Positions 58,012-63,847 of a stretch of DNA of 64,000 bases are shown here, one piece after another. Within the stretch, counting starts at the first letter, position 1. Each line of letters starts with the position of its first letter. The notes under the pieces are model-generated. The model did no database searches. It saw only the letters and a list, made by a program, of their open reading frames with translations, and was not told where the DNA came from. A program made the translations under genes and the position numbers. Source of the DNA: Thiohalorhabdus denitrificans (GTDB taxonomy: Bacteria; Pseudomonadota; Gammaproteobacteria; Thiohalorhabdales; Thiohalorhabdaceae); NCBI RefSeq assembly GCF_001399755.1, contig NZ_LJCP01000010.1, forward strand, positions 434,001-498,000. The letters run 5' to 3'.

Positions 58012-59751
58012 TCACCCGCCCAGATCCGGCAGGTCCTCCAGAGCCTGGAGGCGTTGGGCCACGGTTTCCTCCAGACCCTGCAGTCCGGCGAGGGCCTCCT
58101 CGGCCCCCTGGAGCGCGGGCCGGGCCCGCTTCTCCAGGAGGTTTTGCACCTCGCCCTCCAGCTGCGCCAGACGGTCCTCGACCATCCTTTCCACTTTCTG
58201 ACCGATAACCTCCTGCAGGGAGGATTCCAGGGCCACACGCGGCGATTGCGGGGTGCCGGTGATTCGGCCGGACAGGGTGAACTCCCTCACATTCGCCAGG
58301 GCCTCGGCGAGGGCGCCGGCCAGCTCCCCTTCCCCGGCGGCGGCCAACCGGGCATCGGCGAAGTCGCCTTGCAGGCGGATATCCATCTCCTCGCCGCGCA
58401 GGATCGCCCGCCCTTCCAGGTCGGCCCGGCCCTCCTCCAGGAGCACCTCCAGCGGACCGTCGCCTCCGAAGCGCCAGCCCGCCGCGTCGGCCCCGGTGAT
58501 CCCCAGGTCCAGCCGGTCCTCCGGGCTTTCGGGACGGCGGTGGTCCAGCTCCGCCTCCAGCCGCACCCGGGCCTCCTCCCCCGCCCGGCGTCCTCGGATG
58601 TCCGCGGTGATGGGCTCGGGCCACAGCGAAGGCTGGAAGCTCAGGTCGGCCACCAGGCCCTCCACGCCCAGGCCACCCTCCAGCGGCTCCTCCGGCGTGG
58701 ACAGGCGGATGGTGCGGACCACCGTCTCGGGCTCGGCAGGCTCCTCGGGGAAGCGGATGTCCAGGCCCAGGGCGCGCAGGGGCTTGCTGGCCGTCACCTC
58801 CCCCTCGCCGCCGATCCGCTCCCGCAGCGGCTCCAGGTAGGGGCGCAGGGTGGCGTACCAGTACCAGCCCGACCCCACCCATCGGCCCACCCGCTCGCCG
58901 AACAGGAGGGAGGCCACGTTCCCCAGTCCCTCGGGAGTCGCCTCGTACTTCTCCACCAGCCGTCGGGCATCGCGCCCGGGGGCCTCCTTGAGGCGGGCGA
59001 GGCGCTCGCGGGAACCGCTCACCTCGCCCTCCAGGTCCGCCTGCACCGCCTCGACCCGCTTCAGGTCGGCGCGGATGTCCTTCCGCAGGCGGGCCGCCTC
59101 CTGACCGCCCTTCACCAGCCCGGCGAGTCCGCCGTCGGTGTCCTTGAGGGCGTCCACCCGCTTCTCATAGGCCCTGATGGCCTCCCGGTCCGGCAGGTCC
59201 CGGACGCGCTCCTCAAGGTCCTCCCGGGCCCGGCGGATGTCCCGCTCCAGCCGCTCCGCCTCCTCCACCGTCTGGAGATCGGCCTCGGCCAGCACCTCCT
59301 CGGCGTCGGGGAGCCGGAGCTCCCCCAGACCCTGAGAATCCCCAACCCCGCTCAACTCCTGTTCGGGCTCCGGTGCGGGGGCGTCTTTCAGGGCCCCGCT
59401 GCGCTTCCGGGGGGTCTGGACGGCGGCCCCCTCCACCGCCACCTCGTTGATGCGGGTCCGGCCGAGGACCAGGGAGGACAGGTCCATGTCGAACGCCACC
59501 CGCTCGGCCTGAAAGGCGTTCCGCATGGGGTCCCGGGGGTTGGTTACCTGGAGCCCGTGCAGCCGCACGCGGGCCGGGAACAGGTCCAGCTCGGCCCCGC
59601 GCAGCTCCACCCGGGCACCGACCGCGCGGCTCCCGGCGGACTCCACCGCCCGCTCCAGCCAATAATCGGCGAACAGCCACCAGACCCCACCCGCGAGGAC
59701 CACTAGGCCCAGGAAGACCCCCAAACCCCACCAGCGCACGAACCGGCCCAT
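58012..59751 (-). CDS. TIGR03545 family envelope protein
   Basis: 579 residues: one N-terminal membrane helix (about 8-28), an AsmA-like start (AVGARVELRGAELDLFPARVRLHGLQVTNP), a charged coiled coil (about 150-260) and a C-terminal beta-rich part ending in another coil. The family is always near TIGR03546, as here, where it follows six bases later in the same operon. Function unknown; AsmA-like proteins act in outer-membrane lipid traffic. Confidence 0.85.
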   Translation of the reverse strand: MGRFVRWWGLGVFLGLVVLAGGVWWLFADYWLERAVESAGSRAVGARVELRGAELDLFPARVRLHGLQVTNPRDPMRNAFQAERVAFDMDLSSLVLGRTRINEVAVEGAAVQTPRKRSGALKDAPAPEPEQELSGVGDSQGLGELRLPDAEEVLAEADLQTVEEAERLERDIRRAREDLEERVRDLPDREAIRAYEKRVDALKDTDGGLAGLVKGGQEAARLRKDIRADLKRVEAVQADLEGEVSGSRERLARLKEAPGRDARRLVEKYEATPEGLGNVASLLFGERVGRWVGSGWYWYATLRPYLEPLRERIGGEGEVTASKPLRALGLDIRFPEEPAEPETVVRTIRLSTPEEPLEGGLGVEGLVADLSFQPSLWPEPITADIRGRRAGEEARVRLEAELDHRRPESPEDRLDLGITGADAAGWRFGGDGPLEVLLEEGRADLEGRAILRGEEMDIRLQGDFADARLAAAGEGELAGALAEALANVREFTLSGRITGTPQSPRVALESSLQEVIGQKVERMVEDRLAQLEGEVQNLLEKRARPALQGAEEALAGLQGLEETVAQRLQALEDLPDLGG

Positions 59752-59757
59752 GACGCC

Positions 59758-60264
59758 CTACCCCCGCAGCTCGGCGTAGAGCCGGTACAAGCGATTGGCC
59801 CGCAGGAGGGTCATGATCCGGGAGCGCCTGACCCGGGCCAGGACGTGCTGCCGGTAACGGCGAACAAGCAGAACCGTCACGGGGAAGAGGATCGCGGCCG
59901 CCGCCAAGGAGGCCAAAAGGCTCCCCAGGGTCACGGTGTTGAAGAGGCCGGACAGACGGCCCAGGGCGGTGTTGTACAGGACGGTCCAGAAGCCGCGCAG
60001 CCCCTCGCTGGTGAGCATCGCCAGGCCCAGAGCGTGGAACCACTGGTCGAAGAGGTAGGCCAAGCCGGTGAACAGACCCCAGGCAAGGATGAAGGTGGTC
60101 AGGTTGATGCGCAGTACCAGGGCCAACAGGAAGACCAGCAGATTGGGCGGGGACCACAAGGGCGTCCAACCGGCGACGACGCCCAGAGCCACGGCCCCGG
60201 CGAGCTGCGCGGGGCTGTTCTCCGCGTTCAGCGCCTTCAGGAGGCGGGCCAGGAGCTGGAGCAT
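59758..60264 (-). CDS. TIGR03546 family membrane protein
   Basis: 168 residues from ATG 60264 (AAGG upstream). Three or four membrane helices, with LLARLLKALNAENSPAQLAGAVALGVVAGWTPLWSPPNLL typical of the family (related to DUF2062). First gene of the TIGR03546-TIGR03545 pair. Confidence 0.85.
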   Translation of the reverse strand: MLQLLARLLKALNAENSPAQLAGAVALGVVAGWTPLWSPPNLLVFLLALVLRINLTTFILAWGLFTGLAYLFDQWFHALGLAMLTSEGLRGFWTVLYNTALGRLSGLFNTVTLGSLLASLAAAAILFPVTVLLVRRYRQHVLARVRRSRIMTLLRANRLYRLYAELRG

Positions 60265-60333
60265 GACAGCAGGGACCTTTTGTCTGCAGGGGGTTCCTAC
60301 GACTATAACCCCCTGGAAACCCTCCACAATCCC

Positions 60334-61162: not shown

Positions 61163-61744
61163 TCAGGTCCCGGGCCGGGACTCCAGCACCAGGAGCCGGG
61201 GCGCCGCCCCGCTCTGGTCGGGGGGATCCAGCTCCAGGAGCGCTAGTCCTTCGGGACGCCGGCTCCGGGCCCAGTGCATCACCGCCTCGCATTCCTCGGC
61301 ACCGCCGGGGTGGCCCGGGTAGGCCACCAGGACGATACGCCCTTCCGGGGCCAGCAGGGCCACGGCCGCCTCCAGGGCGGCCAAGGTGGTCTCGGCCCGG
61401 GTGATCACGGCCTTGTCGCCCCCGGGCAGGTAGCCCAGGTTGAACAGGACCGCACCGACCCGGCCCCGGGCCTCGTCGGGCAGGAGCCGCAGGAGGTCCT
61501 CGTGGCCGCCGTGGTGCAGGCGCACCCGCTCCAGGGCTCCGGCCGTCTCCAAGCGCCGGCGGGCGCCAGCCAGGGCCGCCGCCTGGCTGTCCACCCCGTC
61601 CACCCGCCCCTGCGGACCCACCTCCCGGGCCAAGAACAGGGTGTCGTGCCCGTTGCCCACGGTGGCGTCCACCGCCCAGGCCCCCGGGTACAGGCATGCG
61701 GCCGCCGCCCGGTGGGCCCGGCCCACGGCCCCCCGTGCGGCCAT
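61163..61744 (-). CDS. SAM-dependent methyltransferase, YtqB/MnmM-like (possible tRNA wobble modification)
   Basis: 193 residues; ATG overlaps the previous stop by one base (TAATG). Motif I is AVDATVGNGHD (24-34) and the signature NLGYLPGGDKAVIT lies at 102-115, as in B. subtilis YtqB, now MnmM, which methylates nm5s2U34 of tRNA to mnm5s2U34. Its translational coupling to an FAD oxidoreductase suggests a two-step U34 pathway, but it could act on another RNA. Confidence 0.82.
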   Translation of the reverse strand: MAARGAVGRAHRAAAACLYPGAWAVDATVGNGHDTLFLAREVGPQGRVDGVDSQAAALAGARRRLETAGALERVRLHHGGHEDLLRLLPDEARGRVGAVLFNLGYLPGGDKAVITRAETTLAALEAAVALLAPEGRIVLVAYPGHPGGAEECEAVMHWARSRRPEGLALLELDPPDQSGAAPRLLVLESRPGT

Positions 61745-62790
61745 TAGGCGCGGTCCCGGAAGCGGGCGATGTCCGCCTTCGGCGGCAGCGGGGCTTCCTC
61801 CACCAGATGCTCGGCCAGGCGCTCGGCGTAGTAGGGGCCGATCAGGGCCCCCCGCGCCCCCAGGCCGTTGAGCACGCAGGCGCGCGACTCGCGGGGGTGG
61901 CAGCCCAGCAGGGGATGGTGATCGGTGGGGGCGGGGCGGATGCCGGCGCGATGTTCGGTGACCTCCACCTCCGGCCGCTCGCCGAGCAGACCCGGGAGCT
62001 GGTGGAGGAGCTCCGCCCGGCCCGCGGCGGTGGGGACTTCGTCCACATTGTGGCGATCGAAGGTGGAGCCGAGCAGGAACTCCTGATCCCCCCAGGGGAC
62101 CAGGGTCACCTTCCGGTTTACCGGCCGGTCCGGAAGGCCCTCCTCCAGCCGACCGCCCAGAACCTCCCCCTTCACCGGGGTAAGCGGCAGCCAGTGGAAC
62201 CACGGGTTCTCCCGCACCCGGTAGCCCTCGCAGAAGACCACCCGGTCGGCGCGCAGCTCCCCCCAGGCCACACCCTCCGGGCCCACCGTGACGTCCTTCG
62301 GGTCCACCACTCCCCGGCGTAGGGTCCCACTCGCGGCGACGATCTCTGCCGCGGCCTCCAGAAAGGCCTCCGTATCCAGGACCCCGCCCCCGTGCACGGG
62401 ATAGGCCTCCGGCTCCTCCTCGGAGCCCGCCACCGGCGCCCCGAGGTAGGGCCGGAAATCCGGGTCGGCGCGCCGGCGCCGGTAGTGCTCCGCCTCCTCG
62501 GCGCCCCGGCACAGCCGGAGGGTGTCCACCTCCCGCAGCAGGGCGCGCCCGGTCCGCTCCTCCGCGCGCCGATAGGTGCGAATGGCCGCGGGCAGCAGCT
62601 CCTCGAGGGGCCCGGCCCGGGTCAGCCGGCGCCCACCGATGGGCGTGAGCAGGCCGGCGGCGACCCGGGAGGCGGACGCCGCCCGGGGCTGATCCACCAG
62701 GGCCACGCGCCGGCCGCGCTCCAGGAGGGCCAGGGCCAGCAGGCTGCCTGCAAGGCCCCCGCCCACGATCAGGAAGTCATGCTCGTTCAT
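61744..62790 (-). CDS. FAD-dependent oxidoreductase (DAO superfamily)
   Basis: 348 residues from ATG 62790 (MNEHDFLIVGGGLAGSLLALALL; two more Met codons lie just upstream). The dinucleotide fold GGGLAGS is at about residues 10-16, SRVAAGLLTPIGGRR follows, and the C-terminal FAD motif has GIRPAPTDHHPLLG and LNGLGARGALIGPYYAERLAEHL. Related to glycine oxidase/ThiO and to the MnmC(o) domain that removes glyoxylate from cmnm5U34. Paired with the MnmM-like methyltransferase, it may do the oxidation step; an amino-acid oxidase is the alternative. Confidence 0.82.
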   Translation of the reverse strand: MNEHDFLIVGGGLAGSLLALALLERGRRVALVDQPRAASASRVAAGLLTPIGGRRLTRAGPLEELLPAAIRTYRRAEERTGRALLREVDTLRLCRGAEEAEHYRRRRADPDFRPYLGAPVAGSEEEPEAYPVHGGGVLDTEAFLEAAAEIVAASGTLRRGVVDPKDVTVGPEGVAWGELRADRVVFCEGYRVRENPWFHWLPLTPVKGEVLGGRLEEGLPDRPVNRKVTLVPWGDQEFLLGSTFDRHNVDEVPTAAGRAELLHQLPGLLGERPEVEVTEHRAGIRPAPTDHHPLLGCHPRESRACVLNGLGARGALIGPYYAERLAEHLVEEAPLPPKADIARFRDRA

Positions 62791-62845
62791 GTGGTGCATC
62801 ATGCCCAATAGCCACTGCCGATCAACCCCTCGGGAGGGAGCACCC

Positions 62846-63847
62846 TTGTCCAGCCCACCGCCCGGGGAGCCCGCCCCCCTGGACATCCCTCGAGACTGGG
62901 TACGCGCCGCCGAGGCGATGCTGGCGGCCGGCGGGGGCCGGATCGTGGTCGCCGGAGCCGCGGACCGGGGCAAGTCCAGCTTCTGCCGCTACCTGACCGG
63001 CCGCTTCCTGGAGGCCGGCAAGGAGGTGGCCCTACTGGACGCCGACATCGGCCAGAAGGACCTCGGTCCCCCGGCGGCCCTCACCCTGGGGTTCCGCGCC
63101 CCCGGGCGGGAGCCCGAGGACGGGCCGCACGCCTTCTATTTCGTGGGCGCCGTGAGCCCACGCGGTCATTTCCTGCCCGTGGCGGTGGGAGCCGGGCGGC
63201 TTCTGGCCCAGGCCGGAGCCCAGCCGGTCATCGTCAACACCGACGGCCTGGTCCACGGACCCGGCCGGATCCTGCGGCACTATCAGATGGAGGCCCTGGA
63301 CCCCGACCACGTGGTGGCCCTGGAGGCGGAAGGCGAGGCCGGCGCGGTGCCCGCGCCCTTGGGGGCCACGGTGCACCGGCTCCGCCCCGCCCCGTCTGCG
63401 CGGCCCCGGAGCCCCGCTGAGCGCAAGGCGGCCCGGCAGCGGGCCTTCCGGGCCCATTTCCGGAACGCCGGGCGTGCGGTGCTGGACCTGGAGACCTTCC
63501 ACCTGGAGCGCTGCCTGCTGTTCTCGGGCCGGACCGTGGACCCGGGAGGATTCCTACACGCCGAGGAGACCCCGGAAGGCCCTCTGGTGGTAGGCAACCG
63601 GCCTGTCCCCGACGGGACCACCAAACGCCTCCCGGCCGGTTTCGAGCGGGACCTGCTGTGCGGCGTCCTGGACGCCGACGGCCGCTGCCTGGGGCTGGCC
63701 CGCCTGGCGCGCCTCGATTTCCGGACCCGGAGGCTGACCCTGTGGACCCCCGTGCCCCCGACCCGGATCCGGGGCCTGCAGCTGGGCGACCTCTACGTGG
63801 ACGCCGAGGGCCGGGAGCTGGCGCGCAGCCGTCCCCGGCATCTCTAA
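62846..63847 (+). CDS. Clp1/Nol9-like P-loop polynucleotide 5'-kinase
   Basis: 333 residues from a TTG at 62846 with GGGAGGGAG five bases ahead. Walker A GAADRGKSS (near residue 34) and the lid-region DADIGQKDLGPPAALTLG, matching the D-x-D-x-GQ...P-G motif of Clp1/Nol9/Grc3 kinases. These phosphorylate 5'-OH RNA or DNA ends. The C-terminal part is family-like. Bacterial members are little studied; substrate unknown. Confidence 0.82.
   Translation: MSSPPPGEPAPLDIPRDWVRAAEAMLAAGGGRIVVAGAADRGKSSFCRYLTGRFLEAGKEVALLDADIGQKDLGPPAALTLGFRAPGREPEDGPHAFYFVGAVSPRGHFLPVAVGAGRLLAQAGAQPVIVNTDGLVHGPGRILRHYQMEALDPDHVVALEAEGEAGAVPAPLGATVHRLRPAPSARPRSPAERKAARQRAFRAHFRNAGRAVLDLETFHLERCLLFSGRTVDPGGFLHAEETPEGPLVVGNRPVPDGTTKRLPAGFERDLLCGVLDADGRCLGLARLARLDFRTRRLTLWTPVPPTRIRGLQLGDLYVDAEGRELARSRPRHL

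What the first reader, a model, noticed from the sequence alone, without database searches (positions are those of the whole stretch)
61163..62790. A two-gene substitute for MnmC: FAD oxidoreductase overlapping a YtqB/MnmM-like methyltransferase
Seen: the oxidoreductase stop and methyltransferase start share one base (TAATG), and the methyltransferase has NLGYLPGGDK as in YtqB. Known: in E. coli MnmC fuses an FAD domain (cmnm5 to nm5) with a methyltransferase (nm5 to mnm5); B. subtilis uses separate MnmL (DAO-type) and MnmM. Inference: this gammaproteobacterium may use an unlinked MnmL-MnmM-type pair in one operon. If so, mnmC should be missing from the genome.
Basis: partly seen in the sequence, partly recalled or inferred. 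Interest (0 to 1): 0.7.

Follow-up and report, generated by a model that had tools for sequence, protein, structure and literature searches.

The report
Two-gene stand-in for tRNA enzyme MnmC
This bacterium lacks the enzyme MnmC that finishes a chemical mark on transfer RNA, and instead carries an overlapping pair of genes (a flavin oxidase of an unnamed family and the methyltransferase MnmM) that very probably does the same two steps; the same oxidase family is widespread in Bacteroidia, where the first of those two enzymes has been reported missing.

Summary
In detail: on the minus strand, a DAO-family FAD oxidoreductase (62790-61744) overlaps by one base (TAATG) a methyltransferase (61744-61163) that passes NCBIfam's MnmM cut-off. 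No MnmC methyltransferase domain was found in this 99.9% complete genome. The analogy to MnmL is wrong: MnmL/YtqA is a radical SAM protein, not a DAO oxidase. Here a glycine-oxidase-like flavoenzyme is combined with MnmM. The oxidase is neither ThiO nor an MnmC1 orthologue but a separate, well-supported clade. It directly precedes MnmM in 18 of 22 MnmM loci of a gammaproteobacterial sample. In Mariprofundaceae it is also fused to MnmM in one protein, in the opposite domain order to MnmC. In Bacteroidia the same family is in 105 of 149 genomes, co-occurs with stand-alone MnmC2, and in three loci forms an MnmC2-oxidase operon. Linkage to two different nm5U methyltransferase families makes cmnm5(s2)U34 oxidase (cmnm5 to nm5) the best-supported function. 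No biochemistry exists; all of this is inference from sequence and genomic context. The closest paper (Jaroch et al. 2024) could not be read, so priority is uncertain.

The parts
61744..62790 (-). FAD-dependent oxidoreductase (DAO/glycine-oxidase superfamily, separate clade), proposed cmnm5(s2)U34 oxidase, 348 aa
61163..61744 (-). MnmM (YtqB family) nm5(s2)U34 methyltransferase, 193 aa
   Evidence: passes NF053511 cut-off; PDB hits to YtqB/MnmM; catalytic and RNA-binding residues kept
61742..61746 (-). TAATG: stop of the oxidase and start of MnmM share one base
   Evidence: TGATG in the same-genus locus L024
62746..62763 (-). GGGLAG, FAD-binding Rossmann motif (residues 10-15 of the oxidase)
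   Evidence: G10 and G12 align to E. coli MnmC G271 and G273
61936..61938 (-). Arg285, invariant in the oxidase family, MnmC1 (E. coli R567) and ThiO; likely carboxylate-side residue of a glycine-type substrate (inference)
61412..61441 (-). NLGYLPGGDK motif of MnmM (N102, Y105, K111 = B. subtilis N101, Y104, K110)

Best explanation
The two genes form a translationally coupled operon that replaces MnmC. The FAD enzyme oxidises the C-alpha-N bond of the glycine-derived side chain of cmnm5(s2)U34 in tRNA; the imine hydrolyses to nm5(s2)U34 and glyoxylate. MnmM then methylates nm5(s2)U34 with SAM to mnm5(s2)U34. Shown by sequence: an MnmM with its key residues; absence of MnmC2; an oxidase of glycine-oxidase fold in its own clade; conserved adjacency; fusion; partner exchange with MnmC2 in Bacteroidia. 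Inferred: the substrate, the reaction and tRNA binding by the oxidase. The oxidase family is then a third route to nm5U34, beside MnmC1 and the radical SAM MnmL, and a candidate for the oxidase reported missing in Bacteroidetes.
For: MnmM identity: (D34, N, Y, K, Y, H positions nearly invariant in 120 rows). No PF05430 in own genome. In 274 gammaproteobacterial genomes 22 have MnmM and 64 PF05430, none both (P=0.003). Oxidase directly upstream of MnmM in 18 of 22 gamma loci, MnmM on the same strand in 57 of 80 named loci plus one fusion, and adjacent in 93 of 106 loci holding both, with 7 fusions. Fusions are single ORFs, e.g. L104 551 aa and L101 580 aa. TIGR01212 (MnmL) is over cut-off in only 4 of the 22 MnmM genomes and absent from the 99% complete same-genus genome G121. 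A separate ThiO is over cut-off in 19 of 22, own genome included. The oxidases form one clade apart from ThiO and MnmC1. In Bacteroidia: oxidase 105/149, PF05430 107/149, both 89, odds ratio 8, P=1.8e-7; MnmC2-oxidase operons in L253, L254, L255, the methyltransferases of L253 and L254 passing the MnmC2 cut-off. FAD residues of MnmC1 kept: S304=S41, R567=R285, G518=G241, G578=G296, G619=G314 (PMC3648344). Predicted fold (pLDDT 94.6) matches glycine oxidase, iminodiacetate oxidase and MnmC.
Against: No biochemistry or tRNA mass spectrometry. The oxidase scores far below the MnmC1 cut-off (83.7 vs 174.2 bits) and slightly better with ThiO (113.6 vs 250.8). In Bacteroidia 16 genomes have the oxidase without PF05430, and none of those has MnmM; 18 have PF05430 without the oxidase. 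G155 and G266 have a divergent MnmM (NLGWLPRSD) and no such oxidase nearby. The own genome also has a YhcC-like TIGR01212 protein. B. subtilis K11 is His here. Co-occurrence tests are not corrected for phylogeny. mnmE, mnmG and mnmA of this genome were not searched for.
Confidence: 0.8

Rival explanations
1. The oxidase acts on a free small molecule (glycine, sarcosine, iminodiacetate or another N-substituted amino acid) and its linkage to MnmM is for expression or metabolism only.
For: Closest solved folds are glycine oxidase, CmiS2 and iminodiacetate oxidase; no biochemistry on the family.
Against: Recurrent adjacency and fusion to MnmM and the switch of partner to MnmC2 in Bacteroidia are hard to explain unless the substrate is shared with nm5U methyltransferases.
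Confidence: 0.1
2. nm5U34 is made here by the TIGR01212 radical SAM protein (C7:365821-366714) or directly by MnmEG with ammonium; the oxidase does another, perhaps accessory, step on U34.
For: TIGR01212 protein over cut-off in own genome; MnmM alone restores mnm5s2U in an E. coli mnmC mutant (PMC9976899).
Against: That protein is 48% identical to E. coli YhcC over 306 aa, which sits beside MnmC in E. coli; the complete same-genus genome and most other pair genomes have no TIGR01212 protein.
Confidence: 0.07
3. The oxidase is a duplicated or horizontally acquired ThiO or a plain MnmC1 orthologue.
For: Best sub-threshold NCBIfam hits are ThiO and MnmC1.
Against: Own genome has a separate ThiO over cut-off; three-way clade split with full support and SH-aLRT 98-100; family-specific residues such as C187, N195, P196, N308.
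Confidence: 0.03

Closest known systems
MnmC (E. coli, bifunctional MnmC2-MnmC1)
   Same: Proposed to do the same two reactions, oxidation of cmnm5U34 then methylation of nm5U34; the oxidase has the same DAO/glycine-oxidase fold and FAD residues
   Different: Here separate genes or a fusion in reverse order (oxidase N-terminal); the methyltransferase is MnmM (PF06962), a different family from MnmC2 (PF05430); the oxidase is a different clade from MnmC1
MnmL-MnmM (B. subtilis YtqA-YtqB)
   Same: Same methyltransferase family MnmM, paired with an enzyme proposed to form nm5U
   Different: MnmL is a radical SAM protein (TIGR01212); here the partner is a flavin oxidase
Stand-alone MnmC2 of Bacteroidia
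   Same: Same oxidase family is present in most of the same genomes and in three loci in one operon
   Different: The methyltransferase there is MnmC2, not MnmM; MnmM was absent from the 34 Bacteroidia genomes tested
ThiO glycine oxidase / iminodiacetate oxidase IdaA
   Same: Fold, FAD motif and the invariant Arg
   Different: Separate clade; true ThiO is present elsewhere in the genome

Membership tests
MnmM (YtqB) | Match over the curated equivalog cut-off NF053511 | tested here: met
   174.3 bits vs cut-off 135
MnmM (YtqB) | Residues needed for U33/U34 binding and catalysis (B. subtilis K11, D34, N101, Y104, K110, Y141, H144) | tested here: met
   All kept except K11, which is His here and in 103 of 120 aligned rows
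MnmM (YtqB) | Methylates nm5(s2)U34 in tRNA | not testable with these tools
   needs an assay
MnmC1 (oxidase domain of MnmC) | Match over the curated TIGR03197 cut-off | tested here: not met
   83.7 bits vs cut-off 174.2; also below for relatives
MnmC1 (oxidase domain of MnmC) | Groups with MnmC1 in a tree | tested here: not met
   separate clades, 100/99 support each; confirmed with 93 rows
MnmC1 (oxidase domain of MnmC) | FAD residues, including Ser-304 of E. coli MnmC | tested here: met
   S41, R285, G241, G296, G314
MnmC1 (oxidase domain of MnmC) | Converts cmnm5(s2)U to nm5(s2)U in tRNA | not testable with these tools
   needs an assay
MnmL (YtqA) | Radical SAM protein (TIGR01212) | tested here: not met
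   The oxidase is PF01266 DAO with no TIGR01212 hit; MnmL is TIGR01212
ThiO | Match over the TIGR02352 cut-off | tested here: not met
   113.6 bits vs 250.8; the genome's true ThiO scores 282.9
MnmC-dependent pathway | MnmC2 domain (PF05430) present in the genome | tested here: not met
   no match in own genome

The most novel reading that the evidence does not exclude
A so far unnamed clade of glycine-oxidase-like flavoenzymes is the cmnm5(s2)U34 oxidase of most Bacteroidia and of several proteobacterial groups. It is a third route to nm5U34 beside MnmC1 and radical SAM MnmL, combined with either of two different methyltransferase families, MnmM or MnmC2, and fused to MnmM in Mariprofundaceae as a convergent counterpart of MnmC.
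Probability: 0.68. Interest if true: 0.75.

Novelty: new variant of a known kind. Interest (0 to 1): 0.62.

Why it matters
Cho et al. 2023 (PMC9976899) state that mnmC(o) is absent from Bacteroidetes and that organisms with an orphan mnmC(m) or with mnmM are likely to encode an unknown MnmC(o)-like enzyme. Radical SAM MnmL has since been reported for Gram-positives. The family found here is a concrete candidate for Bacteroidia and for mnmM-bearing Proteobacteria, in cultured organisms (Mariprofundus, Methylobacter, Nitrosomonas communis), so the question becomes testable with one deletion or one in vitro assay. It would also show that the MnmC design, an oxidase joined to a methyltransferase, arose more than once from different parts.

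Tried and rejected
(1) MnmL identity of the oxidase: rejected, MnmL is radical SAM. (2) ThiO identity: rejected. (3) MnmC1 orthology: rejected at family level, though the reaction is probably the same. (4) Prediction that Bacteroidia with the oxidase but no MnmC2 would carry MnmM: failed, 0 of 16. (6) tblastn of the oxidase in plasmids and a viral-contig scan with MnmM found nothing. (7) Promoter and terminator scan of the region found nothing. (8) Reading Jaroch et al. 2024 (10.1128/jb.00452-23): not held. (10) Looking for MnmG among the weak DAO hits of the own genome: L004 is an L-aspartate oxidase, so mnmG stays untested.

Full report
OBSERVATION. They share base 61744 in TAATG. The first is PF01266 DAO (8.9e-33), the second PF06962 (7.3e-36). 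The methyltransferase passes NCBIfam's MnmM equivalog cut-off, 174.3 against 135 bits, and its best solved relatives are YtqB/MnmM structures. Of the residues shown by mutagenesis to matter in B. subtilis MnmM (PMC9976899), D34, N101, Y104, K110, Y141 and H144 are kept; K11 is His in this and most of the 120 aligned rows (103 of 120).

MNMC IS ABSENT. No PF05430 (MnmC2) match exists in the 2.87 Mb genome, 99.89% complete. In a sample of 274 gammaproteobacterial genomes, 20 carry MnmM over cut-off and two more as weaker or broken copies; 64 carry PF05430; none carries both (P=0.003, not corrected for phylogeny). A caution: 188 of 274 have neither, so absence of mnmC alone says little.

THE MNML ANALOGY IS WRONG. 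NCBIfam describes TIGR01212 as tRNA modification radical SAM protein MnmL/YtqA, and a held paper calls ytqA a radical SAM enzyme linked to mnm5s2U (PMC12245174). The window gene is a flavin enzyme. TIGR01212 is over cut-off in 4 of 22 MnmM genomes, including this one, and missing from the 99% complete same-genus genome G121. The copy in this genome is 48% identical to E. coli YhcC over 306 aa, a gene E. coli carries as well as mnmC.

WHICH OXIDASE. It scores below the curated cut-offs for ThiO (113.6 of 250.8 bits) and MnmC1 (83.7 of 174.2). The genome has a true ThiO elsewhere (282.9 bits), as do 19 of the 22 MnmM genomes. In a tree of 47 rows the 19 such oxidases, ThiO and MnmC1 are three separate groups, each with support 100/99; a quicker tree of 93 rows agrees. 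The MnmC1 residues reported as critical or >98% conserved (PMC3648344) align to invariant or nearly invariant positions: S304 to S41, R567 to R285, G518 to G241, G578 to G296, G619 to G314; C187, N195, P196 and N308 are particular to the family. The AlphaFold2 model (pLDDT 94.6) is closest to glycine oxidases, iminodiacetate oxidase, CmiS2 and MnmC, enzymes that mostly oxidise glycine or N-substituted glycines (general knowledge). The side chain of cmnm5U is an N-substituted glycine (established chemistry).

LINKAGE AND FUSION. In 18 of 22 gammaproteobacterial MnmM loci an oxidase of this clade is immediately upstream on the same strand; in G079 it is present but unlinked. A named scan gave 80 loci out of at least 553 relatives: Mariprofundaceae, Methylococcales, Cycloclasticus, Nitrosomonas communis and three Bacteroidia MAGs. 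MnmM is on the same strand in 57 and fused in one; of 18 genomes without linkage, 13 have MnmM elsewhere. Over all loci holding both, 93 are adjacent, mostly overlapping by 4-26 bases, 7 are fusions and 6 lie farther apart (a few loci are counted twice because two searches found the same genome). The fusions are uninterrupted ORFs of about 550-580 aa with the oxidase N-terminal and MnmM C-terminal, the reverse of MnmC. They lie in family f191, which is Mariprofundaceae: an f191 oxidase is identical to that of Mariprofundus sp. KV, and the seventh, L128, is a Mariprofundus MAG.

PARTNER EXCHANGE IN BACTEROIDIA. In 149 Bacteroidia genomes the oxidase is in 105 and PF05430 in 107, together in 89 (odds ratio 8, P=1.8e-7, not phylogeny-corrected). 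In three loci the MnmC2 gene and the oxidase form an operon: L253 (2-base gap), L254 (8-base overlap) and L255 (17-base overlap). The methyltransferases of L253 and L254 pass the MnmC2 cut-off, and the oxidases of all three score 261-335 bits with the pair-family profile against 50-62 with MnmC1 and ThiO. Cho et al. 2023 state that mnmC(o) is absent from Bacteroidetes and predict an unknown MnmC(o)-like enzyme there. Against: 16 genomes have the oxidase without PF05430, and none of these has MnmM; 18 have PF05430 without the oxidase.

MECHANISM. Inferred: the FAD oxidase cleaves the glycine moiety of cmnm5(s2)U34 to give nm5(s2)U34 and glyoxylate, and MnmM methylates the product. Shown: the methyltransferase family and residues, absence of MnmC2, fold class, clade, linkage, fusion, partner exchange. 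Not shown: substrate, activity, tRNA binding. mnmE, mnmG and mnmA of this genome were not searched for.

NOVELTY. No held paper found describes this oxidase, and NCBIfam 2026 has no model that it passes. Jaroch et al. 2024, which from memory mentions fusion proteins and alternate arrangements, is not held, so part of this may already be noted there. Filed as a new variant of a known kind.

Noticed in passing
window 62789-63847 (+): A CLP1_P (Clp1/Nol9-like polynucleotide kinase) gene, 103 bits over a 26.6 cut-off, is divergent from and abuts the oxidase start; it is also next to the pair in both other genomes of the genus (L024, L029) and in no other pair locus searched.
   Followed up: partly
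L026 and L027 (G155, G266): MnmM-model matches with divergent motif NLGWLPRSD and no oxidase neighbour; possibly a different specificity or another oxidase.
   Followed up: no
L161, L174, L186: Three Bacteroidia MAGs carry an oxidase copy that nests next to Methylobacter in the tree, suggesting horizontal transfer; two of them have MnmC2, none has MnmM.
   Followed up: partly
Bacteroidia genomes such as G588, G612, G644: 16 Bacteroidia genomes have the oxidase but neither MnmC2 nor MnmM found; nm5U may be the end product, or a third methyltransferase exists.
   Followed up: no
window 58012-60327 (-): TIGR03545 and TIGR03546 family genes lie side by side, both over their curated cut-offs and of unknown function.
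   Followed up: no
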